Positions 2,080-21,867 of a DNA stretch of 27,694 nt are shown here, in pieces. The notes beneath the pieces were generated by a model, which was not told the origin of the DNA, did not search any database, and was given only the letters and a program-made list of their open reading frames with translations. Each line of letters starts with the position of its first letter. Positions within the stretch are counted from its first letter, which is position 1. Made by a program: the position numbers and the translations under genes. The stretch lies in IMG/VR virus record IMGVR_UViG_3300008954_000222, positions 1-27,694 of that record; one strand, 5' to 3'. This DNA comes from a virus.

Positions 2080-4835
2080 TGCCTATTATTTGTAATAAAG
2101 ATTATGACAATCAAAACTTTGATGCTATTTTAAGAGATTGGAATTTAAAGATTGGACCTCATTACGGTAAGGCTTTTAACGCTATGGATTCAAATGGAGT
2201 TGAGGGCTCAGGAAGCATGAAATTACTACAAACCTTAGTAACTACTCAAATAGAAAAGCCATTCCATCAGAATTGGCAGTTAGATAAAGGGCAGACAAAA
2301 AGGATAACTGACGAAATAGATTTTTTATCAAGAAGAATAAAGAATAAAGGTTCATATATAAATCCTTTAACAGATGTGCTATTTAGCAGTGAGACTACAT
2401 CAAGATTTGATCCTATAGCGAGAAAGTTTGTAAATGAATTAGATAATTCCGATAATTTTAAAAGAATACATGAAGTTACTCAGTCAAGAGCAATGGATGG
2501 AATTACTAAAAATTTAAGAGATGAATTTATTGACAGAAATTTACAAGGTAGATATACTTCATTGGGGATTCCACATTTAAGAAATATAGATAAACACCAA
2601 TTTGATATTACCTCTGAGACTTCGGATGCCGAGATAGCTACACAGCGTAATTTAATGGCTGATTTTATGAAAAGTGATAAAGCTTTAAATGAGAATCAAG
2701 TATTAACTCAGTTTATAATGGCCTCTGAAATTAAATCATATAAAAAGGGAACGCCTCAGGCAAGGGCGGCAAGAAAAAGCGGAGAAATATATTTTGAACA
2801 ATCTTCAATAGACGGAATCTATGGAGGGAAATTTAGGAATGTAAAAGATAGTGGTTATTCTCAAAACATATTAGATGCAGCTCAAAAAACAAAATTATAC
2901 TTAAATGATATGGGTAATGTAAGCTTAAAGGGGCTTAGTTTCCTATCTAGCGCGATAAAAGAAAAATATACACTAAAGGGTGGATCTATACAGCATCGCT
3001 CCGTAGATAGGCTTTTAAAAAAAATAGATGAAGCTGAAAGTAGATTGAAAATCGGCATAGAAGATGGCAATTACTTCCCTAGAGAGAATCTAATGCTAAT
3101 GTATAGTTTAAGGGAAGCTGTATATGATCAAATAAGTAATGTTAATCTCAATATAGGAACCGGTGATTTATCTAAACTAGACTTAAGTAAGATAAGCAAG
3201 ACAGAAGCTATAATAGAAAGCATAGGAAATGTTAATGCTATTCCTGATCATCTAAAAGGAAGAAGCAGTGAAATTAATAAATTACAAAATCAAAATCCTC
3301 TAGCCGTTTTGGAAGCTTATGGCACCGAGGCTATTGCTTTTAATAAAATAAATCATATTAAATATCAATATATAAAGGGGGTTAAGAATATTAAAAATGC
3401 TGATTTGCCATATTTAAAAGGCTTACAGCAATATCTAACTGATATGTACACAATATCTACAGAGGGAATTAGCCAAAGAACTCCATGGGTTAATGAAATT
3501 AATAATGTACTAACAACATTAATGACTGTAAAGACTATGGCTTTAAACGCAACGGGCGCTGTTAAAAATCTTGCATCTGTTATAAATTATCATGCAACGG
3601 TAGGGCTAAAAGAAGTACAAGAAAATAACAAGTTATATGAGAGCGATCCTCAAATAGAAGCATGGACCAATAGAGCTCAAAGGGAAGAAGGATTTTTATT
3701 CCAAGATATAGGAAAGTCTTTATTAGTAGAAGGCTTAGTGTCTGAAGAGCAGGCAAAAAGTGGCCTTATACAATTTGATCAAAAAACTGGAAAAATAACT
3801 TATGATGGAAGTCCTATTAAGAGGAATGCAGGGATAGCTAAAGACTGGGCTTTAGATAAATTACTAGTACTTCACCAGATTACGGAGAATATTGTAAGAT
3901 CTCATATATATAAAAACTCATTTATAGGGCAACTGAAACGATATAAAAGCCAAGCTGAGTATTGGGATGAAGTGCCTGAAAAAGATCACATAGAAAATTC
4001 TAAAAGATTTGCCTTAAATATGGTTAATAATACAGCTTTTGGGTACGCGATTCATAATAAATCAAAGCTTAGCAGAGGTGCATCTATAATAGATAAAGAT
4101 GGATCGGGGAACGTCCTAGTGAGAAGCTTGCTATCAGTAGCAACAACACAAACATTTCACATGATGCACTATCCTTTCTCTTTGGCTGAAAGGCACATGA
4201 GGACTTTTATAGGAGCTGGTAAGTCTTTAAAAGCTGGGCAATTTTCTAATTCAGATGAACTTAATCACATGATGAGATATGCTGTTGCCTATGCCGGGTT
4301 ACAGTTAACAGATATATTGATGAATGCCAATTTAAGCAGTCTCGCCGATAATACAACTATAGAGATGATTAAAGGAATGTATTCTGATTTAACTCAATAT
4401 AATAAAAAAGATAAAAAAACATTCGGAGTATTAAATAGAGTTACTGGACCAGCTCCAGGAGCTCTTGAGCATGCTTTAAATTTAGCCGGCATTCACGGAA
4501 TGAGTAAGACAGATTTAGCTAAAATGCTTTTGGGTAACGCCGAACTACAAAATAAAGATATAAATGAAAAAACATTATACACAATTGCTACAATTTTAGG
4601 ACAAGGTTATTCTAAATATTATCCATCTGTAAAAGCAGGGGCTGGATGGGAAGTTACTAGGCATATTTTCAATGCATATCCTACTAAGTTTACAGGAAAA
4701 TATAATTCAAAAATAATGGGTAAGAAGTCTAAGCCCGCTAAAAAAACAAACAATCCTTTTAATGTGAAAAGTCCTTTTTCTAGCAAGTCATCGTCTTTAA
4801 TGGCTGATTTAGAAAAAATAAAAGGGACAGCTTAA
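2079..4835 (+). CDS. Large late-type protein, possible internal virion protein
   Basis: 918 residues from the ATG at 2079; the frame is open from a GTG at 2073, but the ATG sits directly behind a G-rich Shine-Dalgarno (AAGGGGGTG) and overlaps the upstream stop as TAATG. No domain is recognised. The protein is largely helical, with a moderately hydrophobic helical zone around residues 700-760 and a low-complexity Lys/Ser/Pro tail over the last 45 residues. Coupling to another giant ORF at the end of the late block resembles the internal core/ejection proteins of podoviruses. A tail or head-completion protein is equally possible. The last codons form one arm of a terminator hairpin serving the convergent minus-strand operon. 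Confidence 0.75.
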   Translation: MPIICNKDYDNQNFDAILRDWNLKIGPHYGKAFNAMDSNGVEGSGSMKLLQTLVTTQIEKPFHQNWQLDKGQTKRITDEIDFLSRRIKNKGSYINPLTDVLFSSETTSRFDPIARKFVNELDNSDNFKRIHEVTQSRAMDGITKNLRDEFIDRNLQGRYTSLGIPHLRNIDKHQFDITSETSDAEIATQRNLMADFMKSDKALNENQVLTQFIMASEIKSYKKGTPQARAARKSGEIYFEQSSIDGIYGGKFRNVKDSGYSQNILDAAQKTKLYLNDMGNVSLKGLSFLSSAIKEKYTLKGGSIQHRSVDRLLKKIDEAESRLKIGIEDGNYFPRENLMLMYSLREAVYDQISNVNLNIGTGDLSKLDLSKISKTEAIIESIGNVNAIPDHLKGRSSEINKLQNQNPLAVLEAYGTEAIAFNKINHIKYQYIKGVKNIKNADLPYLKGLQQYLTDMYTISTEGISQRTPWVNEINNVLTTLMTVKTMALNATGAVKNLASVINYHATVGLKEVQENNKLYESDPQIEAWTNRAQREEGFLFQDIGKSLLVEGLVSEEQAKSGLIQFDQKTGKITYDGSPIKRNAGIAKDWALDKLLVLHQITENIVRSHIYKNSFIGQLKRYKSQAEYWDEVPEKDHIENSKRFALNMVNNTAFGYAIHNKSKLSRGASIIDKDGSGNVLVRSLLSVATTQTFHMMHYPFSLAERHMRTFIGAGKSLKAGQFSNSDELNHMMRYAVAYAGLQLTDILMNANLSSLADNTTIEMIKGMYSDLTQYNKKDKKTFGVLNRVTGPAPGALEHALNLAGIHGMSKTDLAKMLLGNAELQNKDINEKTLYTIATILGQGYSKYYPSVKAGAGWEVTRHIFNAYPTKFTGKYNSKIMGKKSKPAKKTNNPFNVKSPFSSKSSSLMADLEKIKGTA

Positions 4836-4845
4836 AAGCTATCCC
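4824..4845 (-). terminator. Intrinsic terminator of the minus-strand block
   Basis: Inverted repeat of 10 bp (gggacagctt / aagctatccc, loop of 2 or more). Its single mismatch is a U-G wobble when read as minus-strand RNA but C-A as plus-strand RNA. On the minus strand it is followed by CTTTTATTTTTTC, a good U-tract. On the plus strand no U-tract follows. It therefore ends the long leftward operon and overlaps the last codons of the converging plus-strand gene. Confidence 0.8.
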
Positions 4846-4861
4846 TAATATTCCCGTTTAA

Positions 4862-5032
4862 CTAGAAGCGATGCTCCTTATCTATTGTAAATGTAAAATT
4901 TATTATAAGAAAAGTCACAGTGAAGCTTACTTCAAAATGATTTGATATAAATTGAAATGAAAATGGAAATATCTTTATTACGAAAAAAGTAGTTCCTAAT
5001 AAATTATCCGAAAACCAGTCAATCATCTTCAC
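4862..5032 (-). CDS. Small hydrophobic protein, GTG start
   Basis: 56 residues. GTG start (5032) at ideal distance behind GAGGAGG, overlapping the upstream stop as GTGA. The first residues are Val/Met-Lys-Met-Ile-Asp-Trp-Phe. Two hydrophobic aromatic stretches (about residues 13-29 and 35-49) separated by a short polar turn could be membrane segments or buried beta strands. It is the last gene of the leftward operon before the terminator. Function unknown. Confidence 0.6.
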   Translation of the reverse strand: MKMIDWFSDNLLGTTFFVIKIFPFSFQFISNHFEVSFTVTFLIINFTFTIDKEHRF

Positions 5033-5193
5033 GCGTCAGCCTCCTCTTGTGTATTAGTTAATACCCAAGCTAAACCTTGATTCCATCCTGTAAAAAATTC
5101 TAAGTCTTTATCGTTCGTCCCATTCAATTTCATCTTCTCTAGTGTCATATCCGTTTCCTCGATTTCTCTTATTATTTCTTGTTTTGTTCTCAT
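5029..5193 (-). CDS. Small hypothetical protein
   Basis: 54 residues behind an AGGAG Shine-Dalgarno (spacing 6). N-terminal charged helix, then a Trp/Gly-containing segment (GWNQGLAW) and an acidic end. No family recognised. Its stop overlaps the GTG of the next gene. Confidence 0.65.
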   Translation of the reverse strand: MRTKQEIIREIEETDMTLEKMKLNGTNDKDLEFFTGWNQGLAWVLTNTQEEADA

Positions 5194-5221
5194 TATCACT
5201 CCTGTGATAGATTTTTATACC

Positions 5222-5305
5222 TCAGTCATCCTCATATCCACAATAAGGACAAATAATGCATACATTAAAGTTCATTAATTTTCCGCACTTAGCGCATTCA
5301 AGCAT
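5222..5305 (-). CDS. Tiny zinc-ribbon-like protein
   Basis: 27 residues with five cysteines arranged CxxC ... C, CxxC (C4, C7, C16, C19, C22), like a single zinc ribbon. Start lies 5 nt past the upstream stop. The Shine-Dalgarno is poor, so it probably depends on coupling. One of several small Cys-rich proteins in this operon. Confidence 0.5.
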   Translation of the reverse strand: MLECAKCGKLMNFNVCIICPYCGYEDD

Positions 5306-5309
5306 TTTT

Positions 5310-5510
5310 TCACGCAAAATCAAACTCCTTTGAACCTCCCAACTCCTTATATCTTTTATATACTACTTTTAAACTTTCATCGTCAAGGTGGAAATATATA
5401 CCTTTTTTTGTAAGAATACCTAAATAAAGCTTTAAAATATCTTTAGGCGTTAATGCTGATCTTCCTTGCCAATTTCCATTAATATCATCCTTCGGTACTA
5501 ACGTCTTCAT
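5310..5510 (-). CDS. Small hypothetical protein
   Basis: 66 residues, overlapping the end of the upstream gene by 26 nt, with AAGGAG 10 nt before the start. Soluble, mixed charge, with a Tyr/Lys-rich middle. No family recognised. Confidence 0.6.
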   Translation of the reverse strand: MKTLVPKDDINGNWQGRSALTPKDILKLYLGILTKKGIYFHLDDESLKVVYKRYKELGGSKEFDFA

Positions 5511-5691
5511 CTTCTACTTTCTCCTTTACTACTTTAGCTATTTCTACTCTTCCATTTAAACTTAACCAATTCCATAAGCCATATCTATCTTCAGCCCATT
5601 CAGCAACTTTATCCCCAGCCTCAACTAGGGACTCAGCTTCAACTTCTTTACTACATCCATTAACTTCTAAACTAACTAACCACTTCTTCAT
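5485..5691 (-). CDS. Small hypothetical protein
   Basis: 68 residues with a good ribosome site (CAGGAGG) and a start overlapping the upstream stop as ATGA. A predicted beta-alpha fold with a Trp-rich middle (AEWAEDRYGLWNWL) and an acidic tail. No family recognised. Confidence 0.65.
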   Translation of the reverse strand: MKKWLVSLEVNGCSKEVEAESLVEAGDKVAEWAEDRYGLWNWLSLNGRVEIAKVVKEKVEDEDVSTEG

Positions 5692-5849
5692 TCAACCTCC
5701 TGTACTCTTAAAACTTGCCTACCTCTTATTCTACTCATTGCTATTTTTTCTGTTGGGGCTTCTATTTCTATCCACATATCTCTGTCTTGCAGTTCGTCCC
5801 AATAAGTTATCCGATAGGTTTTTGGAGTCTTCTTTTCTTCTTTGCTCAT
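5688..5849 (-). CDS. Small hypothetical protein
   Basis: 53 residues, preceded by AAGGAGG at spacing 6, the strongest ribosome site nearby, and stop-start coupled (ATGA) to the next gene. Reads MSKEEKKTPKTYRITYWDEL at the start, then alternating polar/hydrophobic residues. The junction pattern makes this frame more credible than the longer overlapping frame at 5731-5928. Confidence 0.65.
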   Translation of the reverse strand: MSKEEKKTPKTYRITYWDELQDRDMWIEIEAPTEKIAMSRIRGRQVLRVQEVE

Positions 5850-5928
5850 CTTCTTCCTCCTTTATAAAGTTATATAATTCAGGATATAACATCATATCCT
5901 CTAAAAGTCTATTTTTTACTGTGCTCAT
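5731..5928 (-). CDS. Doubtful overlapping ORF
   Basis: 65 residues, starting inside the end of the 110-aa upstream gene with only a polypurine run as ribosome site. The first half (up to a Glu-rich stretch) looks protein-like. The second half, rich in Arg, Asn and Ser, lies over the better-supported 53-aa gene in another frame. Either the two genes overlap, or only the first part once had meaning. Confidence 0.35.
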   Translation of the reverse strand: MSTVKNRLLEDMMLYPELYNFIKEEEDEQRRKEDSKNLSDNLLGRTARQRYVDRNRSPNRKNSNE

Positions 5929-6241
5929 TCTCTCTTCTTTCTTCTTCTATCATAGCCCATAGTAAATTAAGGTATACAATAGAATCTGTTATTCTTCCAC
6001 CTATGTCTTCTCGCTGCGACACATGCCCTTTAACGAAGGAGCTAATACCATCTATATGTTTTAGCAGATAAGTCATAATAACGAGCTTAGAGTTAATATT
6101 TAAGCTTTTAGCCACTCTTTTAAAGTTAGCAAATATATCGTTATCATCCATAGCATATTCTTTTTGTCCTTCCTGCCGCATCTTAGACACAGCAGGATTG
6201 ACAACTTTAGTTAAAAACTCTACATATTCAACTTGTTTCAC
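5909..6241 (-). CDS. DUF1599/Nmad1-like small phage protein
   Basis: 110 residues with GTG start overlapping the previous stop (GTGA) and AGAAGG at spacing 6. The core (KEYAMDDNDIFANFKRVA, a basic helix, then DSIVYLNLLWAMI) resembles the short all-helical family DUF1599, also called nucleotide-modification-associated domain 1, common in phages and related in style to MazG-like folds. That family is thought to act on nucleotides, but no activity can be read from this sequence. Family recognition is from memory of the motif order. Confidence 0.6.
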   Translation of the reverse strand: MKQVEYVEFLTKVVNPAVSKMRQEGQKEYAMDDNDIFANFKRVAKSLNINSKLVIMTYLLKHIDGISSFVKGHVSQREDIGGRITDSIVYLNLLWAMIEEERRENEHSKK

Positions 6242-6522
6242 AGAACACCTTCTCTCCTAATTACTGGAGTAATAAGCTTGCCACTAATACTGCATTTCCT
6301 GCGTTTAGTTTCAAGTACTTTACCTTCTTTCTTTAAGCTATTTACTCTAGCGCAAATAGAAGGCATTTCTATACCTCCCACCTTACGCTTTAACTCTCTT
6401 AAAGAATAATTAGCTAAATCAGCCATAGAATTTAATATTCTTTCTTTTTGACTCAAAGGTTTCCCGGTTTTATTAATCTCTCTATAAGCTATTATAGAAG
6501 TTTCTTTTACATTAGTCCTCAT
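6238..6522 (-). CDS. Winged helix-turn-helix DNA-binding protein
   Basis: 94 residues; GAGGAAG ribosome site. The pattern 'tSIIAYREINKTGKPLSQKERIL ... SLRELKRKVG.IEMPSICARVNSLKKEGKV' is the classic phage winged helix: helix 1, HTH with Ser-Ile-Cys-Ala-Arg-Val recognition helix (about 52-66), then a wing containing Cys and Gly. Likely a small transcription regulator. The operator is unknown. Confidence 0.75.
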   Translation of the reverse strand: MRTNVKETSIIAYREINKTGKPLSQKERILNSMADLANYSLRELKRKVGGIEMPSICARVNSLKKEGKVLETKRRKCSISGKLITPVIRREGVL

Positions 6523-6542
6523 AGTCTTCCTCTTTTCTTAGT

Positions 6543-6812
6543 TTAAAATGGCATATCGTTATAAACAGTGCAATTTGTCTCATTTTTCTTCAGCTTCTTC
6601 ACTGACATAGATCTAGATACTCTTATTCCTAAATGGTCAAGAAGGCCATTTACTCTATGTTTTGTTTCCATCATATCATCTCTTAGATATTCCAAAGGCT
6701 TTATACTTTTTACTCCAGCAGAAGATAGATATATTACTCCTGCCGCTGATAAAGCTTTTTCTAGCATATCTATTCTCTTCTCTAATGCTTCTATTTTTTT
6801 ATTATTAAACAT
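6543..6812 (-). CDS. Small coiled-coil protein
   Basis: 89 residues beginning with a heptad-like helix (KKIEALEKRIDMLEKALSAAG), followed by a Gly-containing linker and a basic segment. Its start overlaps the upstream gene. Probably oligomeric. Function unknown. Confidence 0.6.
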   Translation of the reverse strand: MFNNKKIEALEKRIDMLEKALSAAGVIYLSSAGVKSIKPLEYLRDDMMETKHRVNGLLDHLGIRVSRSMSVKKLKKNETNCTVYNDMPF

Positions 6813-7032
6813 TTACTTTCTTTTCCTTTTCTATGCATAGTTTGCATTTTTTCTTTTTTAATCCATAAGTTGGGAAATCTGAATGCGTTACTGTATACTT
6901 CCAATGCATTTCCCATGCATACCCACATGCTTCACACAGTTTAACTGGGAAACCTTTAGTTGTAGGCATGTCTAACTTCTTATTCCTAATTGGCGGACCT
7001 TGTATAGTCCAATGCGCCTTATAGTCTTTCAT
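6805..7032 (-). CDS. Small CxxC/CxxC protein
   Basis: 75 residues, ATGA-coupled to the upstream gene and behind GGAGG. Two CxxC knuckles (CEAC near residue 33, CKLC near 64) separated by a Trp/Tyr-rich segment, and a Lys-rich tail; a likely zinc-binding fold. No family recognised. Confidence 0.65.
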   Translation of the reverse strand: MKDYKAHWTIQGPPIRNKKLDMPTTKGFPVKLCEACGYAWEMHWKYTVTHSDFPTYGLKKKKCKLCIEKEKKVNV

Positions 7033-7208
7033 TTATCAAATCCTCCAAATATATCTTTAAAACTATCAGGTAAATCGTAATTAACTGGTTTATCACATTT
7101 TTTACATATAGCTTTAAATGGTTTTATTTTACCTTTAACTAACTCTAATACAAGAGTTCCACACTCGGCACAATATACCTTTTTTCTTATCTTAGTTGTA
7201 GCGTTCAT
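7029..7208 (-). CDS. Small zinc-ribbon protein
   Basis: 59 residues behind GGGAGG. Contains CAEC (13-16) and CKKC (35-38), spaced like a zinc ribbon with an intervening beta pair. Stop-start coupled on both sides (ATGA). Resembles the small Com-like zinc proteins of phages in layout only. Confidence 0.65.
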   Translation of the reverse strand: MNATTKIRKKVYCAECGTLVLELVKGKIKPFKAICKKCDKPVNYDLPDSFKDIFGGFDK

Positions 7209-7357
7209 TCTTCCTCCCAGTAATATTCACATTTCTCCTCTTCTCTAGGAGATTCAACGAAATATGATTGCATATACTTATGAGGTTTAACTTTAAAGCG
7301 ATGGCAAGTATCTTTTTGAGGACACTCGCTATCTGTACACATGCATATATCAGGCAT
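7205..7357 (-). CDS. Small Cys-rich protein (MPDICMC type)
   Basis: 50 residues with a perfect AAGGAGG at spacing 6. Five cysteines (C5, C7, C12, C18, C43) in the order MPDICMC...CP...C...C. Similar short Cys-rich ORFs are common among environmental phage small genes. It probably binds a metal. Function unknown. Confidence 0.65.
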   Translation of the reverse strand: MPDICMCTDSECPQKDTCHRFKVKPHKYMQSYFVESPREEEKCEYYWEEE

Positions 7358-7526
7358 ATTTAACCTCCTTTATAAGCATAAAGCCATCATCTTCTTCAGC
7401 TACCCAACAAATGTCTTTATCCATACCTTGATAAACCTGATAACCTATTTTATATAATGCGAAGACCATCTCTTTAATTTGGTTTTCATTCAAATTTTCA
7501 GTTTGAAGCCTGATTTCTGCTTTCAT
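7350..7526 (-). CDS. Small hypothetical protein
   Basis: 58 residues with an alternating strand-helix-strand pattern (KAEIRL, then a helix, then GYQVYQ and ICWVAEED), overlapping the next start. AAGGAG ribosome site. No family recognised. Confidence 0.65.
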   Translation of the reverse strand: MKAEIRLQTENLNENQIKEMVFALYKIGYQVYQGMDKDICWVAEEDDGFMLIKEVKYA

Positions 7527-7527
7527 T

Positions 7528-7698
7528 TTATTTCTCCTTTGCTTCTGTTTTCTCCTCTAATGAAGTTTCTTGTTCACACTGACAACACCAGACTACTTCC
7601 CCATCATCTGCCAATCCAGCTGACTTTCCTGTATTTATTTTCACCCATTGTTTTTCTTCAACATCAGAAGAGCCACATTTTTCACATACATATTTCAT
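7528..7698 (-). CDS. Small zinc-ribbon protein
   Basis: 56 residues: CEKC at 5-8 and CCQC at 38-41 around a beta hairpin with Trp, then a Glu/Lys-rich tail. AAGGAG ribosome site. A zinc ribbon by pattern; partner unknown. Confidence 0.65.
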   Translation of the reverse strand: MKYVCEKCGSSDVEEKQWVKINTGKSAGLADDGEVVWCCQCEQETSLEEKTEAKEK

Positions 7699-7711
7699 TT
7701 TATTTCTCCTT

Positions 7712-7891
7712 TTAATTTAAGCAGTTTTTTTCTAGTCCTATTTTAAATTCTATATGTGCTTTTTCTTTTTCTTGAATATATGCTATCCATTTATTTAATT
7801 CATTTCTATCGGTAACTTTTAATCCTCTACCTTCAAGGTAATTAATTAATGACCATAGTGAAAATTCAAATGTTCTTTTTTCCATACTCAT
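7712..7891 (-). CDS. Small hypothetical protein
   Basis: 59 residues from the ATG that overlaps the upstream stop (ATGA), with AGGAG 4 nt away, the spacing used elsewhere in this operon. Helical, ending in a Lys/Glu-rich helix. An alternative start two codons downstream exists. No family recognised. Confidence 0.6.
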   Translation of the reverse strand: MSMEKRTFEFSLWSLINYLEGRGLKVTDRNELNKWIAYIQEKEKAHIEFKIGLEKNCLN

Positions 7892-8136
7892 TCATCTCCT
7901 TTTAGTGCTTCGATTAACATTCTAACTGAGCCGACTGTTTTGTATTTAACTTTATTAATTCCATATCTCTCCATTGACAGCCTTCCTATACCGTTATTAA
8001 CAATTATCTCCAATCCATTTATTGTCAATTCATAATCACTATATTTGGTTTTCTCAAATCCTAATTCTCGCAAGGTTTCATCTGTCAATAGGCTTAAATC
8101 ATTAAAGCTATCAAGTGTTTGTATTCTGTCTTTCAT
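7888..8136 (-). CDS. Small hypothetical protein
   Basis: 82 residues, ATGA-coupled to its upstream neighbour. Pattern of a helix (LTDETLRELGFEKTK), two strands (YELTINGLEIIVNNG) and a final helix. No family recognised; the strands suggest a compact alpha/beta fold. Confidence 0.6.
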   Translation of the reverse strand: MKDRIQTLDSFNDLSLLTDETLRELGFEKTKYSDYELTINGLEIIVNNGIGRLSMERYGINKVKYKTVGSVRMLIEALKGDE

Positions 8137-8312
8137 CTTATTTCTCCTTTTAATTCCTTAAATGATATATCATAAACATCATCAGTTATATCCATACCCT
8201 GACCTGTCCATTTATAACCCTTACCCTCGAAAAAATCTCGGATTTCACCTATAAATCCTTCTTCTACTTTAGTGTTAAAAAACACTCTTAAACTACTTTC
8301 TTGTAGTTTCAT
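8133..8312 (-). CDS. Small hypothetical protein
   Basis: 59 residues. I start at the ATG at 8312 because AAGGAG lies 5 nt before it; the frame is open 7 codons further up without a ribosome site. Strand-helix-strand layout with 'FFEGKGYKWTGQG', a pattern seen in small phage proteins of unknown role. First gene after a 360-nt non-coding stretch. Confidence 0.6.
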   Translation of the reverse strand: MKLQESSLRVFFNTKVEEGFIGEIRDFFEGKGYKWTGQGMDITDDVYDISFKELKGEIR

Positions 8313-8375
8313 TCTTTCTCCTTCCGGCATCAATGTCGCTTACTCTTGTCGTAAAAACTATATACTTTTTCTAAC

Positions 8376-8522
8376 ACAATAAATGAGAGAGTGCAGTTTA
8401 TCAACACTGCATTTTCTTACTATCATCGCTCTTATTTAAAAGATAAGAGATAATTTCAGAGTCCTTTCACTTAAGCACTTATAAGGTGGATATTTAGACG
8501 AACTCTCTCTTTTGTTTATTGT
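8376..8522 (-). ncRNA. Structured RNA candidate in a gene-free gap
   Basis: The gap 8313-8676 holds no credible ORF. A long-range helix of 8+7 bp (8376-8383 with 8515-8522, 8385-8391 with 8503-8509) closes a domain containing two further hairpins: tgcagt/actgca (8392-8411) and ctctta/taagag (8429-8449). This could be a small RNA or the leader of the downstream leftward genes. The strand is assumed from the flanking genes. Confidence 0.5.
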
Positions 8523-8676
8523 TTTATATAATTACCCCTCTGTATAACAGGTTTTTTAGAATTAATTAATAATAACCAACATTCTTTGCGTTTGTTGTTT
8601 AAGTAGTTATACGACTAATTATATAGTATTAACCTCTCTTGCATTTAACAAATTCCTTTCGGTTCGTTAATAGAAG

Positions 8677-8862
8677 TTAATTTTTATTATAGAATGAATG
8701 GCAATCTTTATCAATACTATCTATTATAATATCATTTAAAGCTTTACTTATTAATATTTTTAAAGCCTCTTCTTGGATATTAAAACTAATATCAGCTGTA
8801 CCATTATCATTCTCTATTACATCTAGCACCTCTATCTGAGGTATAGTCTTTTTAGAAGCCAT
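8677..8862 (-). CDS. Small hypothetical protein
   Basis: 61 residues whose ATG lies inside the end of the nuclease gene, with TTAGGAGG at spacing 5. Strand-rich N-half (IEVLDVIENDNGTADISFNI), then a helix. No family recognised. Confidence 0.65.
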   Translation of the reverse strand: MASKKTIPQIEVLDVIENDNGTADISFNIQEEALKILISKALNDIIIDSIDKDCHSFYNKN

Positions 8863-9583
8863 ACGGGCCTCCTAAGCAATGATCTTTCCATTCACAGTAA
8901 TTACATTCCCAGCTTTCAGAAGGGCTGTCTCCAGGGCTAAGAGGAGGTAATCCTTTAGCGTGCAATTCATTTGTTTGCTTCCACCATTCTTTAGCTCTAT
9001 CCATCCAATATAAAGGAACATCAATCGTTTTCATAGCTGATGTATCTTTATTATAATAGACTAATCCCATACTATCTATTCTTTTAAACTTTTGCTCTAT
9101 TCCTACAGCATACATGCCCAATTGCATAGAGTAGCGCGGATCTTCTTTTGTTATGGGTCTGGTCTTCGTTCCTATCTTATATCTCCAAGAATTACTATTA
9201 GTAGTCTTGAAGTCATAAAGATGTATACTCCCGTCTTCACATTCCATAACACAATCAAAGAAGCCTCTGACATTGTAATCAGGCATTTGTAGCTCTTCTT
9301 CATAGTGGAACTTAACAGCTCTATCCTCTTTAGTATTGTAGAGCTTTAAGGCTTTCTCCATGTCATCATGGAAAATAGTTCCTAGCCTCATCTTCCGGAA
9401 AGATTCATTATCGATAGGATTAGTAGGCTTAGCATGCTCAACACACTTATAATATAGCTTCCTACGACAACTACCGCTACTAGAAGCTCCATACCACCTT
9501 TCGTTTCCTTCGTATCTCTCAAGTCTATTCTCCTCATTCTTGTGGTTAATCCACTCTTGATATACTCCTTCAAAATCTATCAT
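8852..9583 (-). CDS. Cas4/RecB-like PD-(D/E)XK nuclease with Fe-S cysteines
   Basis: 243 residues. Visible nuclease motifs: H72 (GTIFHDD), D110 (RGFFD), D124-F-K126 (LYDFKTT) and Q154...Y158 (QLGMY), the order of the RecB/Cas4 exonuclease family. Cys39 plus Cys227, Cys230 and Cys236 (CNYCEWKDHC) match the four-Cys Fe-S cluster that staples the N- and C-terminal ends in Cas4 and AddB. Expected role: ssDNA or dsDNA end processing for phage recombination. It sits with the resolvase, SSB and Sak4-like genes. No CRISPR array is in the window, so a phage recombination role is favoured over adaptation. Confidence 0.85.
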   Translation of the reverse strand: MIDFEGVYQEWINHKNEENRLERYEGNERWYGASSSGSCRRKLYYKCVEHAKPTNPIDNESFRKMRLGTIFHDDMEKALKLYNTKEDRAVKFHYEEELQMPDYNVRGFFDCVMECEDGSIHLYDFKTTNSNSWRYKIGTKTRPITKEDPRYSMQLGMYAVGIEQKFKRIDSMGLVYYNKDTSAMKTIDVPLYWMDRAKEWWKQTNELHAKGLPPLSPGDSPSESWECNYCEWKDHCLGGPYGF

Positions 9584-9810
9584 ATTAAATTTCCTTTAAA
9601 TGTTTTAATTACCTCTTTAAATAGAGGATGTCTTTGTCTTATAAAAGGTTTGTGAAAGTCACACCCTTTATCTACAATTTGTGCTGGTATTGGTTTAGGC
9701 TCTTGATTTATAGTTCTAAAATATAAACAATTACCTAAGAATTTTGTATTATGTAGAGCTTGGAAAGCACAATTCCAACACTCTCTATTCTTTATCTCCT
9801 GCTGTTCGAT
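9580..9810 (-). CDS. Possible Cys-containing small protein without ATG
   Basis: The frame between the 58-aa ORF and the nuclease is open from about 9810 to a TGA overlapping the nuclease ATG (ATGA), the usual junction of this operon. It encodes CWNC, a further Cys 16 residues on (LGNCLYF) and GCDFHKPFIRQRHP, which looks like real protein with a metal-binding flavour. No ATG, GTG or TTG is in frame upstream. GCAGGAG lies near 9800, so either a rare start (ATA/ATC class) is used, it is made by frameshift from the 58-aa gene, or it is a decayed gene. Given extents are the open frame, not a defined start. Confidence 0.4.
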   Translation of the reverse strand: MEQQEIKNRECWNCAFQALHNTKFLGNCLYFRTINQEPKPIPAQIVDKGCDFHKPFIRQRHPLFKEVIKTFKGNLI

Positions 9811-9961
9811 TTAATAACTCCAATAATAATAAATTAGTTCTCTCTTGTTCTTTAACAATAGCTACGATGGACTTACATATAAGCTCAACATTGGGCTCTA
9901 TACAGCCTTTATCTATCCATTGCTCTATTACTCTTTGGATTGAATCAGATTGAGAAATCAT
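9785..9961 (-). CDS. Small hypothetical protein
   Basis: 58 residues, ATGA-coupled to the resolvase stop. Helical (DSIQRVIEQWIDKGC, then a long helix ending in a Leu run). Poor ribosome site, so reinitiation is likely. No family recognised. Confidence 0.55.
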   Translation of the reverse strand: MISQSDSIQRVIEQWIDKGCIEPNVELICKSIVAIVKEQERTNLLLLELLNRTAGDKE

Positions 9962-10416
9962 TTTAAACTTGGGCCTAATGATGATAATTCCATCCCATAT
10001 TTAGCTATAAGTATAGCATCAGCTGTTGCTAATGTGCACTTAATTCCTGGATAATATTCACTAGCTAAATCTCTAAGCTTATGTTTTCTTGATTTCTTTT
10101 CTTTTGGTAGGGGATGATATTTCTTCATCCATTTTTGAGGTGACACCATCGATACTCCGATGTTTAAGGCATGTAGTATACCTAGCCATGTGCCGAAGTT
10201 TCTTCCAAAACTGAAAGCACTAACGACTCCATCTCTAGGCATACTATGAACATGCTCAATTATTGCTACTTTAACTCTGTAGCCTTTTGTTTCTTTCCTA
10301 ACAAGCGATACCATTTCTTCTATAGTTTCAGGGCACTTATAAGCTATCGCTTTATGCCTATCTTTTATAAAACAAATACCACCACCCTTACCGGGGTCTA
10401 TCCCTAAGTAAATCAT
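9958..10416 (-). CDS. RuvC-like Holliday junction resolvase
   Basis: 152 residues from the ATG at 10416, chosen because GGAG lies 7 nt upstream and the catalytic strand starts at once (MIYLGIDPGKGGG). RNase H fold residues: D7, E54 (AIIEHVHSMP) and D133 (TADAILIAKYG), the RuvC order. The usual length of phage RuvC-like enzymes is about 150-180 aa. It should cut branched intermediates made during recombination or before packaging. Its start overlaps a 55-aa ORF in another frame. A longer frame to 10452 lacks a ribosome site. Confidence 0.85.
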   Translation of the reverse strand: MIYLGIDPGKGGGICFIKDRHKAIAYKCPETIEEMVSLVRKETKGYRVKVAIIEHVHSMPRDGVVSAFSFGRNFGTWLGILHALNIGVSMVSPQKWMKKYHPLPKEKKSRKHKLRDLASEYYPGIKCTLATADAILIAKYGMELSSLGPSLK

Positions 10417-18611: not shown

Positions 18612-18960
18612 TAGTCTCTCCCATAGAAATACCTGCAGCCTTTAATAAGTTTGCTAATTCAGGACCAGTACTCATTTGATCTTGAATCTTATTTATTTCT
18701 ATTTGTATTGCCTCTTGAGACAGCTCATGGTCTATCAAATCATTGTCTAATTCACAAAGCTTTATATTATCATCCCAAGAAAGGACTTCCATTACTGCTG
18801 CAGCAAAAATCATAGTTATTCTACCCTCAGTAACAATTTCCTTATTAACTTTCCCGTCGCCCTTTATCACTTCAATGTGAAGTTTTGCAACGTGGTTACA
18901 AATTCCCCCTAATAGAGACTCTAATAAATCTCTACTTGGAGCTATGTATTTATCTCCCAT
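18601..18960 (-). CDS. Hypothetical protein, helical
   Basis: 119 residues from the ATG at 18960, chosen because AAGGAG lies just before it; a GTG 7 codons upstream opens the frame without a ribosome site. Helical and acidic, with 'GRITMIFAAAVMEVL'. No family recognised. Confidence 0.65.
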   Translation of the reverse strand: MGDKYIAPSRDLLESLLGGICNHVAKLHIEVIKGDGKVNKEIVTEGRITMIFAAAVMEVLSWDDNIKLCELDNDLIDHELSQEAIQIEINKIQDQMSTGPELANLLKAAGISMGETNAG

Positions 18961-19081
18961 TATAAACTCCTTTTTGACCACTTTTTGTGGTTTTCGTTCT
19001 CATTATATTTATCTTAAACTTCTTAAATTTTTTCATCAATTTAAAAAGTCTAACTCTTGTTTTAACGTTATTTAAACGCAT
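18950..19081 (-). CDS. Small, very basic peptide
   Basis: 43 residues with a near-perfect AAGGAGT ribosome site, ending inside the next gene. About a third Lys/Arg, no acidic residue, e.g. LMKKFKKFKINIMRTKTTK. Possibly a nucleic-acid-binding peptide or a leader peptide coupling translation of the 119-aa gene. Confidence 0.5.
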   Translation of the reverse strand: MRLNNVKTRVRLFKLMKKFKKFKINIMRTKTTKSGQKGVYNGR

Positions 19082-19116
19082 ATTACTCCTTATTTATGAC
19101 TCCATTTACTTAATAT

Positions 19117-19178
19117 TAAGAGCAACTACCGCCCAACAAGGAGTCTATTATTAAAACGGTCTTTTATTGTTGCTCTTA
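19117..19178 (-). ncRNA. Stem-loop RNA just 3' of the tRNA
   Basis: 10-bp helix taagagcaac/gttgctctta (19117-19126 with 19169-19178), with an internal accg/cggt helix. It starts 5 nt after the tRNA. Its loop contains ACUCCUU, fully complementary over 7 nt to the AAGGAGU ribosome site of the 43-aa gene about 30 nt downstream. It could be a tRNA-processing signal or a translational switch. Confidence 0.5.
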
Positions 19179-19183
19179 TCGTG

Positions 19184-19258
19184 TAGCGGGAACAAGAATC
19201 GAACTTGCTATCTCCAGATTATGAGCCTGGTGTGGTTATCCATTTCCACCCTCCCGCT
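19184..19258 (-). tRNA. tRNA with CAT anticodon (Met, or Ile2)
   Basis: 75 nt including the discriminator A. Acceptor AGCGGGA/TCCCGCT pairs fully; D-arm GTGG/CCAC; anticodon arm CCAGG-CTCATAA-TCTGG, anticodon CAT; T-arm GCAAG-TTCGATT-CTTGT. The 3' CCA is not encoded. The paired A1-T72 argues against initiator tRNA. With CAT it is either elongator Met or an Ile tRNA modified at C34 (lysidine). It is the only tRNA I can fold in the window. Confidence 0.92.
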
Positions 19259-19276
19259 ATTAAAACTAAAACCAAA

Positions 19277-19309
19277 GAGAGTGAGTCGTTAGTTTCGTAC
19301 TACACTCTC
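19277..19309 (-). ncRNA. Hairpin 5' of the tRNA
   Basis: gagagtg/cactctc (7 bp) capped by tagt/acta with a 5-nt loop. It sits about 19 nt upstream of the tRNA in the direction of transcription. It may guide processing of the tRNA precursor. Confidence 0.45.
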
Positions 19310-19365
19310 AATGATTTCACCATATAAATTTACTCTATATTTTTTACACCTGCCCGCTAATTAGA

Positions 19366-19617
19366 TTAAAGTGTTTCGATCTTTTCAACAAGATCTTTAA
19401 TAGCACCTATAATGTCTTTTTTTGAAGACCTTTGATCTACCCCTTTTAGAGTGATATTAATATATGAACTTACTTTATATTCATCTTCCTTTAAAGACGT
19501 TGGAAGATATAGTGATAAAATTAAATTATCACAATGTTGCTGGATGAAATGGGGCGCAATTTCTTCCCCTATATCTTTCTTTACAACATGTGGTCCATCG
19601 TAATATTCACGATCCAT
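19366..19617 (-). CDS. Hypothetical protein between large RNA and tRNA
   Basis: 83 residues behind AAGGAG. Beta-rich middle (NLILSLYLPTSL, KVSSYINITLKGV) and a final helix (SKKDIIGAIKDLVEKIETL). No family recognised. Confidence 0.65.
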   Translation of the reverse strand: MDREYYDGPHVVKKDIGEEIAPHFIQQHCDNLILSLYLPTSLKEDEYKVSSYINITLKGVDQRSSKKDIIGAIKDLVEKIETL

Positions 19618-19644
19618 TTTTTACTCCTTGTTTTATGTTTTATT

Positions 19645-20880
19645 AATTAAATTAAATTATCTATAGCCTGAGATTATAGCTATTAACAAAGATCTTTAAG
19701 AGTCATTATTTTTTCTACTCTATATCCACATACCCTTGCAGGTAGTAATCTTCAATGCCAATGAGTTACACTCATCACTCGTCTCGTTCAAGTTATCTTT
19801 GCAACTACTTACTCTATTAACCCTTATCAGGATCTTAACTACTGCTAAGTAGAATAAAGTTTTTATCACAATTATATAGCCTTGTGAGCTACATAATACT
19901 CCTTATTTCAGGAGCCAGAGGCATCTATACTCTTGAACGTCTATGCTATTTTACTTTTTCTATATAACCTAACTAGGTTTATGGTAAAAGTACGGAAAAT
20001 CAAGATGTCACATAGATATAGCGTCCTACTTTCGTAAGATATACTATACACCTTGATGTATTCTCTTCTGGTGAAAGAGTTTATACAGCTAATTAACATT
20101 GCCTTTTATTACTAAATGACAATCTATACTAGCTAGAATACGCAACAAACCACCACAGTCACTGCATAATTCCTTAGAGTTCTCTTATTGGCTATTAACC
20201 TCAACTAGCTTTGCCATTGCTAGTCATTGAAACCTTCACCACTTGGCGTTAGGTTTTAATGATACCTCTATTGCATACTTAACTACTTTACAGTAGCGCA
20301 ATTACATTCTTTTAGATGTAATCACTTTATTCCCATTGCTGGGTTTATTTAACGACTATATGCAGCCGTATTAATTATCATTTTTTATCTCCTTGTTATT
20401 TCTCTCAATAATATTTATCGCTTCCCATTGAGATAATGGAAGAAAATTTGTGTAAGTCTAAGGTTCAACTTACCGGGAGAACTCCACGTTTCAATCGAAA
20501 CGCCTCCTTTTGGGTGCAAATTAACTAGTTTAAAACTAGACGATGCCACCCCCATCATACATCGCAAATCTCGGTTTATTTCCGTGTTTGACGTAAGCTG
20601 ATTACACTTACAACTGGCTTAAGGTAATACCAGTATTATACCCCTTTCCGTGGAAAGTTAATTTGTGTGTTATAGCTGGCACTATAACGTTGTAGCAGAT
20701 TAATTCCATACTCCAGTTTCACTGAAGTTCTGCTACTTACTATTGAATATTCGCTAAGTAATTATACTTAGGTTTCTTCTAAGGTAGATAGTCGCTACCA
20801 TGAGTTCGACTTAAGCAGTTTACAATGCTTAGGTCAGTTGTTACGTTCCGAAAATTTTAGGGACTTACATCTTTCGAATG
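19645..20880 (-). ncRNA. Very large ornate structured RNA (GOLLD/ROOL-class candidate)
   Basis: About 1.24 kb without a convincing ORF on either strand. Stem-loops by eye (window coordinates): 19663-19682, 19901-19916, 20025-20038 (loop GAAA on minus), 20059-20077, 20204-20224, 20224-20262 (12 bp with an inner cgcc/ggtg hairpin), 20283-20296 (loop GUAA), 20303-20321, 20332-20343 (loop GCAA), 20452-20473, 20487-20502, 20669-20688, 20692-20736 (8-bp helix around a second hairpin), 20755-20772, 20784-20800 and 20813-20830. Three GNRA tetraloops appear only when read on the minus strand, the strand of all flanking genes. Size, density of helices and nearness to a tRNA are as known for GOLLD and ROOL phage RNAs. 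I cannot confirm family membership by eye. Confidence 0.72.
20831..20846 (-). repeat. 16-nt repeat copy R3
   Basis: Minus-strand ACGTAACAACTGACCT, followed at once by the hairpin aagca/tgctt. Near the 5' end of the large RNA. See R1 and R2. Confidence 0.55.
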
Positions 20881-20888
20881 CCCTTAAC

Positions 20889-21089
20889 TTAACTTACTTC
20901 AAATAAGGTATTCAGGTCGCTTTTAAACGCCTGAGATTCCCAGATTATTGAAGTTAATTTGGGTTTAATTACAAAAATATCATCTACTTCGCAGATTGCG
21001 GTAATAACCACTCCACGAGGTAAATCAGAACCATCCGCTCTCCAGCTGGATGATCCATTACTTTTTTGATAAATGATTATCTCATTCAT
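20889..21089 (-). CDS. Small hypothetical protein
   Basis: 66 residues from the ATG at 21089, where GGAG lies 5 nt before; the open frame reaches 21179 without a start signal. Beta-rich: EIIIYQKSNGSSSWRADGS, GVVITAICEVDDIFVIKP. No family recognised. Last gene before the large RNA. Confidence 0.6.
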   Translation of the reverse strand: MNEIIIYQKSNGSSSWRADGSDLPRGVVITAICEVDDIFVIKPKLTSIIWESQAFKSDLNTLFEVS

Positions 21090-21190
21090 TTTTACTCCAT
21101 TTGTTTTAATTTTAGTTATAATTGGAAAGGTTATCGTACTATCCACTCTTATCGTAATAAGAGACGCTGAACACTTCATCCTTGGTTCAA

Positions 21191-21206
21191 AGGTTAGTTG
21201 TCACGT
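21191..21206 (-). repeat. 16-nt repeat copy R2
   Basis: Minus-strand ACGTGACAACTAACCT, overlapping the start of the hairpin cctt/aagg. 52 nt from R1. Confidence 0.55.
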
Positions 21207-21242
21207 CAGAATGGATACCCGCGTTCAGAGCGGATTAAGACT

Positions 21243-21258
21243 AGGTTAGTTGTTACGT
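21243..21258 (-). repeat. 16-nt repeat copy R1
   Basis: Minus-strand ACGTAACAACTAACCT. It starts 5 nt after a TATAAT box (21264-21269) that lacks a recognisable -35, so it would overlap a transcription start. A ccgc/gcgg hairpin follows. Candidate operator or activator-dependent middle promoter. The gap 21090-21389 otherwise holds only hairpins and a terminator. Confidence 0.55.
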
Positions 21259-21336
21259 TTATTATTATAAAAGTACGCTATCTAACGCACTCTACTCTCT
21301 ACTTGAGAGAAGTATATAATAAATATAAATTTAAAA

Positions 21337-21369
21337 ATAATAAGCAGAAGAAAAACTCCTGCTTATTAT
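21337..21369 (-). terminator. Intrinsic terminator after the first minus-strand gene
   Basis: Perfect 11-bp stem ataataagcag/ctgcttattat with an 11-nt loop, followed on the minus strand by UUUUUAAAUUU. On the plus strand CCCTTTTT follows, so it may work both ways. It would isolate the 95-aa gene from the rest of the leftward block, implying another promoter below it (see R1). Confidence 0.7.
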
Positions 21370-21389
21370 ACCCTTTTTATAAACAGAAC

Positions 21390-21677
21390 TTAAAACTTAC
21401 TAAGAGGCTCTGACTTATCCTCTTCGATCCCACTCAGCACGGATCTCATTTTTTCCAATTCAGCCGGTGCTCCGGTAACTGAAAGGCTCAATCCCTTCAG
21501 TTCTTGGAGATTGACAGACAACCTGTCAATTTCCTTCCGCCCCCGTCTCTTGACTTTATAGTCACGAGAGGTAGCATTAGCAAAGGCGCCAGCATACTCA
21601 ACAACTATCTTAGCACAACAGTCTTTGAAGGCATCGAGAGTCATAGTAGCACGCAATATGTTCATAAATTCCCACAT
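21390..21677 (-). CDS. Hypothetical protein, first gene of the leftward block
   Basis: 95 residues behind AGGAG. N-terminal helix with two adjacent Cys, a basic patch (KVKRRGRKEIDRLSV), then Leu-rich helices. Noticeably richer in G+C in codon choice than its neighbours. Its own promoter and terminator bracket it, as expected for a very early gene. No family recognised. Confidence 0.65.
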   Translation of the reverse strand: MWEFMNILRATMTLDAFKDCCAKIVVEYAGAFANATSRDYKVKRRGRKEIDRLSVNLQELKGLSLSVTGAPAELEKMRSVLSGIEEDKSEPLSKF

Positions 21678-21723
21678 ACATTCTCCTAATTAAACGAAAA
21701 AACTTAAAAATACAAAATCAAAA

Positions 21724-21786
21724 TTAACGTAATCGTGTTAACGAAAAGTCCACCGATAGGGGGTGGGGAGGGAAATAAGACCTCAT
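21724..21786 (-). CDS. Possible 20-codon leader peptide
   Basis: Strong GGAGG 8 nt before an ATG. 20 residues starting MRSYFPPHPL, between the minus-strand promoter and the 95-aa gene. The Pro-rich start could stall ribosomes. It may be chance. Confidence 0.3.
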   Translation of the reverse strand: MRSYFPPHPLSVDFSLTRLR

Positions 21787-21867
21787 ATTAAAATCCTCCA
21801 TTTTTTGAAAGTACGACTTATAAAATTTTCCATTTTTTTTTAGGATAGTAGAACACACTACTCTTAT

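What the first reader, a model, noticed from the sequence alone, without database searches (positions are those of the whole stretch)
19645..20880. 1.24-kb hairpin-packed non-coding RNA, GOLLD/ROOL-like or new
No gene on either strand but at least 16 stem-loops, three GNRA tetraloops on the minus strand only, long-range helices, and a tRNA about 0.4 kb downstream. GOLLD and ROOL are established phage-borne giant RNAs often near tRNAs. At 1.24 kb this is longer than typical for either, so it could be a divergent or new class.
Basis: partly seen in the sequence, partly recalled or inferred. Interest (0 to 1): 0.92.

Follow-up and report, generated by a model that had tools for sequence, protein, structure and literature searches.

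The report
GOLLD RNA beside an unnamed phage RNA
A non-coding stretch of a marine phage genome is not one 1.2-kb giant RNA but two RNAs end to end: a normal-sized member of the known cage-forming GOLLD family, and in front of it a second folded RNA with no Rfam match, which three other phage lineages carry without a detectable GOLLD.

Summary
The stretch is non-coding and unusually folded on the minus strand: 22 hairpins against a shuffled mean of 13.7, and five GNRA loops on minus against none on plus. The GOLLD guess is right for about 60% of it. Rfam GOLLD (RF02032) matches 19665-20056 minus over its full model at 158.9 bits (cut-off 150). Alignment with two phage relatives places the whole GOLLD at about 20370-19655 (715 nt), an ordinary GOLLD length.

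The extra ~0.5 kb is a separate element. The GOLLD relatives lack it, but three other phage lineages carry its core (20841-20669 minus) without a detectable GOLLD. A model built from those three alone finds the window at 42.6 bits (E 2e-11, rough). 22 of 38 pairs show two-sided changes, against 1-5 when partners are slid. No Rfam family matches. Its 5' end is a pseudoknot whose near-exact form occurs alone in dozens of phages, usually upstream of genes.

So this is a new member of a known giant-RNA family next to a candidate new phage RNA. Cage formation is inferred from published cryo-EM of another GOLLD. The second RNA's function is unknown; a free-standing structured phage RNA is most likely. 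Expression was not tested.

The parts
19655..20370 (-). GOLLD RNA, whole (about 715 nt); 5' end at the ACGGCUGCAUAUAGUCGU hairpin
   Evidence: 70-73% nucleotide identity over this block, and only this block, to GOLLDs of two phage relatives L178 and L176; 205 consensus pairs, 59 with compensated two-sided changes; MFE z -6.9
19665..20056 (-). GOLLD conserved 3' domain
   Evidence: Rfam RF02032, model 1-416/416, 158.9 bits, gathering 150
20057..20370 (-). GOLLD 5' domain (not in the Rfam model)
   Evidence: conserved with L178 and L176; weak match to the same part of a high-scoring GOLLD phage (L187, 61% over 241 nt)
20669..20841 (-). Core of a second structured RNA ('element B'): pseudoknot, hairpin, three-way junction, outer stem around an invariant AUGGAAUUAAU, hairpin with invariant loop GUGCCAGC
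   Evidence: covariance model R1; leave-one-out model R2 42.6 bits, E 2.4e-11, 20668-20838; 22/38 pairs with two-sided changes vs 1-5 when slid
20812..20841 (-). Putative H-type pseudoknot ACAACUGACCUAAGCAUUGUAAACUGCUUA (ACAA/UUGU and UAAGCA/UGCUUA)
   Evidence: related near-exact pseudoknot in dozens of phages. On sequence alone the window copy does not stand out from chance pseudoknots; it rests on the alignment
20692..20736 (-). Outer stem GUAGCAG/CUGCUAC enclosing a hairpin and AUGGAAUUAAU
   Evidence: stem kept with different sequence in L202 (GGUAUCA/UGAUACC) and L204 (GAUAGUU/AACUAUC)
20669..20688 (-). Hairpin GUUAUA-GUGCCAGC-UAUAAC, loop invariant in all four lineages
20382..20668 (-). 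Variable 3' part of element B, then a hairpin shared with L101 (CUCAAU../AUUGAG vs CUGAAU../AUUCAG) and a Shine-Dalgarno site
   Evidence: 73% match over 20449-20378 to L101, E 1e-5; most stable tile of the window
20349..20381 (-). 10-codon mini-ORF (AAGGAGAUAAAAAAUG...UAA) running into the GOLLD 5' hairpin; at the same place L101 has a 52-aa ORF
   Evidence: sequence; L101 ORF 6175-6333 minus
21337..21369 (-). Terminator-like hairpin after the 95-aa ORF 21677-21390, upstream of both RNAs
   Evidence: the same arrangement in L204 (terminator 7918-7945)
19183..19258 (-). tRNA-Met(CAT) downstream of GOLLD
   Evidence: next to GOLLD also in L176 (9 nt 3') and L181 (5' side)

Best explanation
The stretch holds two adjacent RNAs on the minus strand, in a short intergenic region at the divergent junction with the terminase genes of a marine phage. 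(1) 20370-19655 is a full GOLLD RNA of ordinary size (shown). By homology to env-38 GOLLD it should fold into a 5' cap domain and a 3' ring domain and self-assemble into an RNA-only 14-mer cage during infection (inferred; not tested on this sequence). (2) 20841 to about 20400 is a separate structured RNA, element B, with a covarying core of about 170 nt (shown). It has no Rfam match and comes and goes independently of GOLLD (shown, within the limits of fragmentary records). The most likely mechanism is that B is a free-standing structured phage RNA acting as a folded RNA, transcribed just ahead of GOLLD (inferred, about 60%). A cis-acting leader is the main alternative (about 25%). Its pseudoknot belongs to a small RNA module used alone by many phages, mostly a few tens of nucleotides upstream of a Shine-Dalgarno site, which suggests a role in mRNA translation or stability (weak inference).
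For: GOLLD: RF02032 above cut-off; seven phage records of the terminase-relative set also carry it, one of them a near-identical copy of this phage; the block conserved with L178 and L176 ends at 20370-20377; 59 of 205 pairs compensated. Element B: four divergent versions share AUGGAAUUAAU, GUGCCAGC and covarying stems; leave-one-out detection; only those lineages match among 50 whole records and about 3 Mb of loci; GOLLD not detected in the eight records of the other B lineages and B not detected in the GOLLD relatives, so the two are separable; in L204 B lies between two terminator-like hairpins, which bounds a unit of about 0.53 kb. Pseudoknot: in 51 distinct contexts the free closing pair is complementary in 49 (shuffled mean 24, max 38 of 10,000). 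Cage formation of GOLLD: PMC12286853.
Against: No expression data. Only four distinct B sequences were found; the structure was drawn by eye from three of them plus the window, though leave-one-out detection supports it. The three-way junction is weakest in the window row. There is no terminator between B and GOLLD, so one long transcript is possible. The GOLLD bit score is only 9 bits above the cut-off. In one search the GOLLD model rang nowhere, so absence from the other B lineages may partly reflect divergence or fragmentary records.
Confidence: 0.87

Rival explanations
1. One 1.2-kb GOLLD with an unusually long 5' domain, B being a GOLLD peripheral domain.
For: Same strand, no terminator between the two, 5' GOLLD regions are known to vary (PMC12286853).
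Against: The two closest GOLLDs start at the same hairpin and have an ORF (L178) or unrelated sequence (L176) upstream. B occurs without a detectable GOLLD in three lineages. In L101 B is followed by a gene where the window has GOLLD.
Confidence: 0.08
2. B is a cis-acting leader (riboswitch- or attenuator-like) of a small gene that used to start at 20381; GOLLD later displaced that gene.
For: A Shine-Dalgarno site and ATG follow B at 20381, and L101 has a 52-aa ORF at that point. The pseudoknot alone usually lies upstream of phage genes.
Against: In L204 a terminator-like hairpin follows B before the next gene, and in L200 a tRNA-like sequence follows. The genes downstream differ between lineages. 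At 450-530 nt it is large for a leader.
Confidence: 0.25
3. B is the remains of a coding or mobile element and its folding is incidental.
For: Narrow distribution: four lineages.
Against: 22 of 38 pairs with two-sided changes, none of 500 shuffles reaching this; leave-one-out detection; no protein-coding frame of 60 aa or more.
Confidence: 0.03

Closest known systems
GOLLD RNA (Rfam RF02032; env-38 structure in PMC12286853)
   Same: Full-length model match above cut-off; 5' plus 3' domain layout; about 715 nt against 833 for env-38; phage; neighbouring tRNA-Met
   Different: Low score (158.9 bits) compared with 295-329 bits in typical GOLLD phages found here; a second structured RNA lies directly upstream
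ROOL RNA
   Same: Large structured phage RNA, near tRNAs
   Different: No match to the window region at E<=5
Phage pseudoknot GACCUNAGUAAGUC-N-UUAAACUGCU (unnamed; e.g. Staphylococcus phage 37 at 4081, Lactobacillus phage KC5a at 19195)
   Same: Near-exact match to the 5' end of element B in L202 (96% over 26 nt); same pseudoknot pairing
   Different: Stands alone there, between a head gene and the next gene; no Rfam family at E<=0.1

Membership tests
GOLLD (RF02032) | Covariance-model match above the curated cut-off over the whole conserved 3' domain | tested here: met
   158.9 bits vs 150, positions 1-416 of 416
GOLLD (RF02032) | Separate, less conserved 5' domain of about 300-420 nt | tested here: met
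   20057-20370 conserved and covarying with L178 and L176
GOLLD (RF02032) | Total length about 700-850 nt | tested here: met
   conserved block 19655-20370, 716 nt
GOLLD (RF02032) | Phage or prophage location, often near tRNA genes | tested here: met
   terminase, portal, helicase; tRNA-Met 0.4 kb away
GOLLD (RF02032) | Self-assembly into a 14-mer cage; intermolecular bridges | not testable with these tools
   shown for env-38 only (PMC12286853)
ROOL | Match to the Rfam ROOL model | tested here: not met
   no match at E<=5 in 18900-21800
GOLLD (applied to element B) | Element B is part of GOLLD: co-occurrence and conservation with it | tested here: not met
   not detected in six other GOLLD relatives, present without detectable GOLLD in three lineages
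Any Rfam 15 family (element B) | Match to a curated family | tested here: not met
   nothing credible in the window; nothing at gathering score over B in the B loci; nothing at E<=1 around B in L200

The most novel reading that the evidence does not exclude
Element B is an undescribed class of free-standing phage RNA, about 450-530 nt, that occupies the same early-junction slot as GOLLD and can be combined or swapped with it. Its 5' pseudoknot would be a widely shared, unnamed RNA module found across phages of unrelated hosts.
Probability: 0.55. Interest if true: 0.7.

Novelty: new variant of a known kind. Interest (0 to 1): 0.52.

Why it matters
GOLLD cages have no known function. A locus that pairs GOLLD with a second, independently distributed structured RNA gives a concrete partner to test. 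The pseudoknot, conserved almost letter for letter in phages of Staphylococcus, Lactobacillus, Anoxybacillus and uncultured marine hosts, is a short element whose role could be measured directly in laboratory phages.

Tried and rejected
blastn of the whole region against 50,697 phage records: no match. The conserved-GOLLD pattern scan brought 93 stretches, mostly chance; a minority proved to be GOLLD. ROOL and other Rfam families at E<=5: only chance-level scores. Element B in bacterial genomes: 49 pattern hits, none with the hairpin, none by model. Two further viral patterns gave no new B lineage. Weak B hit in L133: inside an ORF, rejected. Weak model hits in pseudoknot phages (L240, L263 and others): carried mainly by the shared pseudoknot, not counted as B. 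Free search for pseudoknots in the window: too many chance hits to be evidence. Small ORFs around the RNAs: no homologue in the fetched loci. Sigma-70 promoter scan: no more sites than shuffles. Host: the nearest annotated terminases are only about 25% identical, so the host stays unknown.

Full report
What is there. Between a 96-aa open frame (20889-21179 minus) and an 83-aa one (19366-19617 minus), the window has no ORF of 60 aa or more on either strand. The minus strand is rich in hairpins and has five GNRA loops against none on plus. Folding is more stable than shuffled sequence, more so on minus than on plus, and 20401-20800 minus is the most stable of 92 control tiles.

GOLLD. Rfam GOLLD covers 19665-20056 minus with its full model, 158.9 bits against a cut-off of 150. 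The Rfam model is only the conserved 3' domain, so the 5' limit was found by comparison. Terminase and helicase searches gave phage relatives; seven of 50 records carry GOLLD above cut-off, one of them (G001) a 99.97% identical copy of this phage. Against two of them (L178, L176) similarity of 70-73% runs from 20377/20371 to 19665 and stops. The alignment begins at a hairpin, GGCUGCAUAUAGUC, identical in the three. RNAalifold on this block predicts 205 pairs, 59 with compensated changes. GOLLD here is therefore about 715 nt, an ordinary size. Published cryo-EM of env-38 GOLLD (833 nt) shows a 14-mer RNA-only cage with a 5' cap and a 3' ring, and names a Met-tRNA neighbour (PMC12286853). In this phage group tRNA-Met(CAT) also sits beside GOLLD: 0.4 kb 3' in the window, 9 nt 3' in L176, directly 5' in L181. 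Cage formation by this sequence is inferred, not shown.

The other half-kilobase. In L178 an ORF ends shortly before the GOLLD 5' end, and in L176 the upstream sequence is unrelated. The window's 20378-20880 matched only L101 convincingly, a relative (85% terminase identity) without a GOLLD match. Reading those matches as RNA showed a stem with an invariant loop GUGCCAGC behind an invariant AUGGAAUUAAU. A pattern scan of IMG/VR for the pair returned 15 contigs; those with a 6-bp stem around the loop fall into four versions: window/L053, L101=L202, L197/L204/L208 and L200/L203/L205/L207. They share a pseudoknot, a hairpin, a three-way junction, an outer stem and the GUGCCAGC hairpin, with different sequence in most stems. 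Of 38 pairs, 22 have two-sided changes, against 2-4 (first alignment) or 1-5 (model-fitted alignment) when partners are slid. The structure was drawn partly from these same sequences, so a model was rebuilt without the window; it finds the window at 20668-20838, 42.6 bits, E 2.4e-11 (rough), as its only match there. I call this element B.

B and GOLLD are separate modules. B is not detected in six other GOLLD relatives, and GOLLD is not detected in eight records of the other B lineages. The GOLLD control rang nowhere and all records may be fragments, so absence is suggestive only. In L204, B lies between two terminator-like hairpins about 0.53 kb apart (sequence; the scan lists the upstream one, the downstream one was read from the sequence). 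In the window a terminator-like hairpin (21369-21337) likewise follows the 95-aa ORF upstream. All four B versions lie at a junction with terminase genes, 3' of an ORF of about 90 aa; these ORFs were not shown to be homologous. L101 has a 52-aa ORF where the window has GOLLD, behind a shared hairpin and Shine-Dalgarno site, as if GOLLD had entered or replaced a gene there.

The pseudoknot. The first 28 nt of B in L202 match intergenic sequence of Staphylococcus phage 37, Lactobacillus phages KC5a and Lj771 and Anoxybacillus phage A403 at 93-96% (E 0.04-0.2), each time between head-region genes. The pattern GACCUNAGUAAGUC-N-UUAAACUGCU occurs in 90 IMG/VR stretches. The two free positions that should close stem 1 are complementary in 49 of 51 distinct contexts (shuffled mean 24, max 38 of 10,000), and those of stem 2 in 40 of 51 (mean 32, 1 of 10,000). 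Five of 51 lie inside a long open frame. A Shine-Dalgarno-like site follows at a median of about 50 nt. I found no Rfam family in the four annotated phage loci and no paper describing it in the library searched, which misses most subscription journals. The window's copy is a divergent one and would not be recognised without the alignment.

Mechanism and verdict. GOLLD: an RNA made in infection that by homology assembles into a cage; what the cage does is not known. B: most likely a free-standing structured RNA of the same leftward transcript; a leader for a displaced gene is the main alternative. Neither transcription nor processing could be tested. The finding is real; its main part belongs to a known family, and its excess length leads to a candidate new RNA.

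Noticed in passing
window 20831-20847, 21191-21207, 21243-21259 (minus): Three copies of AACGTRACAACTRACCT, expected 0.08 by chance; the first forms the 5' side of the element B pseudoknot, the other two lie upstream of a 66-aa ORF with a Shine-Dalgarno site (about 21089-20889).
   Followed up: partly
L200 8140-8190, L385 (same contig as L184/L173) about 11100, L386, L387, L388, L389: A third conserved non-coding motif, GGUAUGUANGUACC hairpin then GAACUCUGAUCAGGGGAGCUAGCAUAAAUU, shared by at least six phages, one with GOLLD, one with element B; no Rfam match.
   Followed up: partly
L200 6865-8440: About 1.5 kb without a convincing gene: element B, a tRNA-like sequence, a GOLLD-like 5' hairpin (GGGCUGCUUAUGGUCC) and about 1 kb of unknown hairpin-rich sequence; a 30-nt repeat occurs twice.
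   Followed up: no
L263 (20.7-kb contig) 2006-10071: Several copies of the pseudoknot motif in one phage (two exact, others by weak model hits), apparently before successive genes.
   Followed up: no
L202 3332-3951: A 620-nt non-coding stretch with hairpins and a tRNA-like end in the L101/L202 phage; no Rfam match at gathering score.
   Followed up: no
window 21750-21766 (minus) and L202 1906, L200 6501, L178 61-77: Short hairpin followed by a T-rich TTTTC tail upstream of the ~90-aa first ORF in each phage; possible early promoter or terminator element.
   Followed up: no
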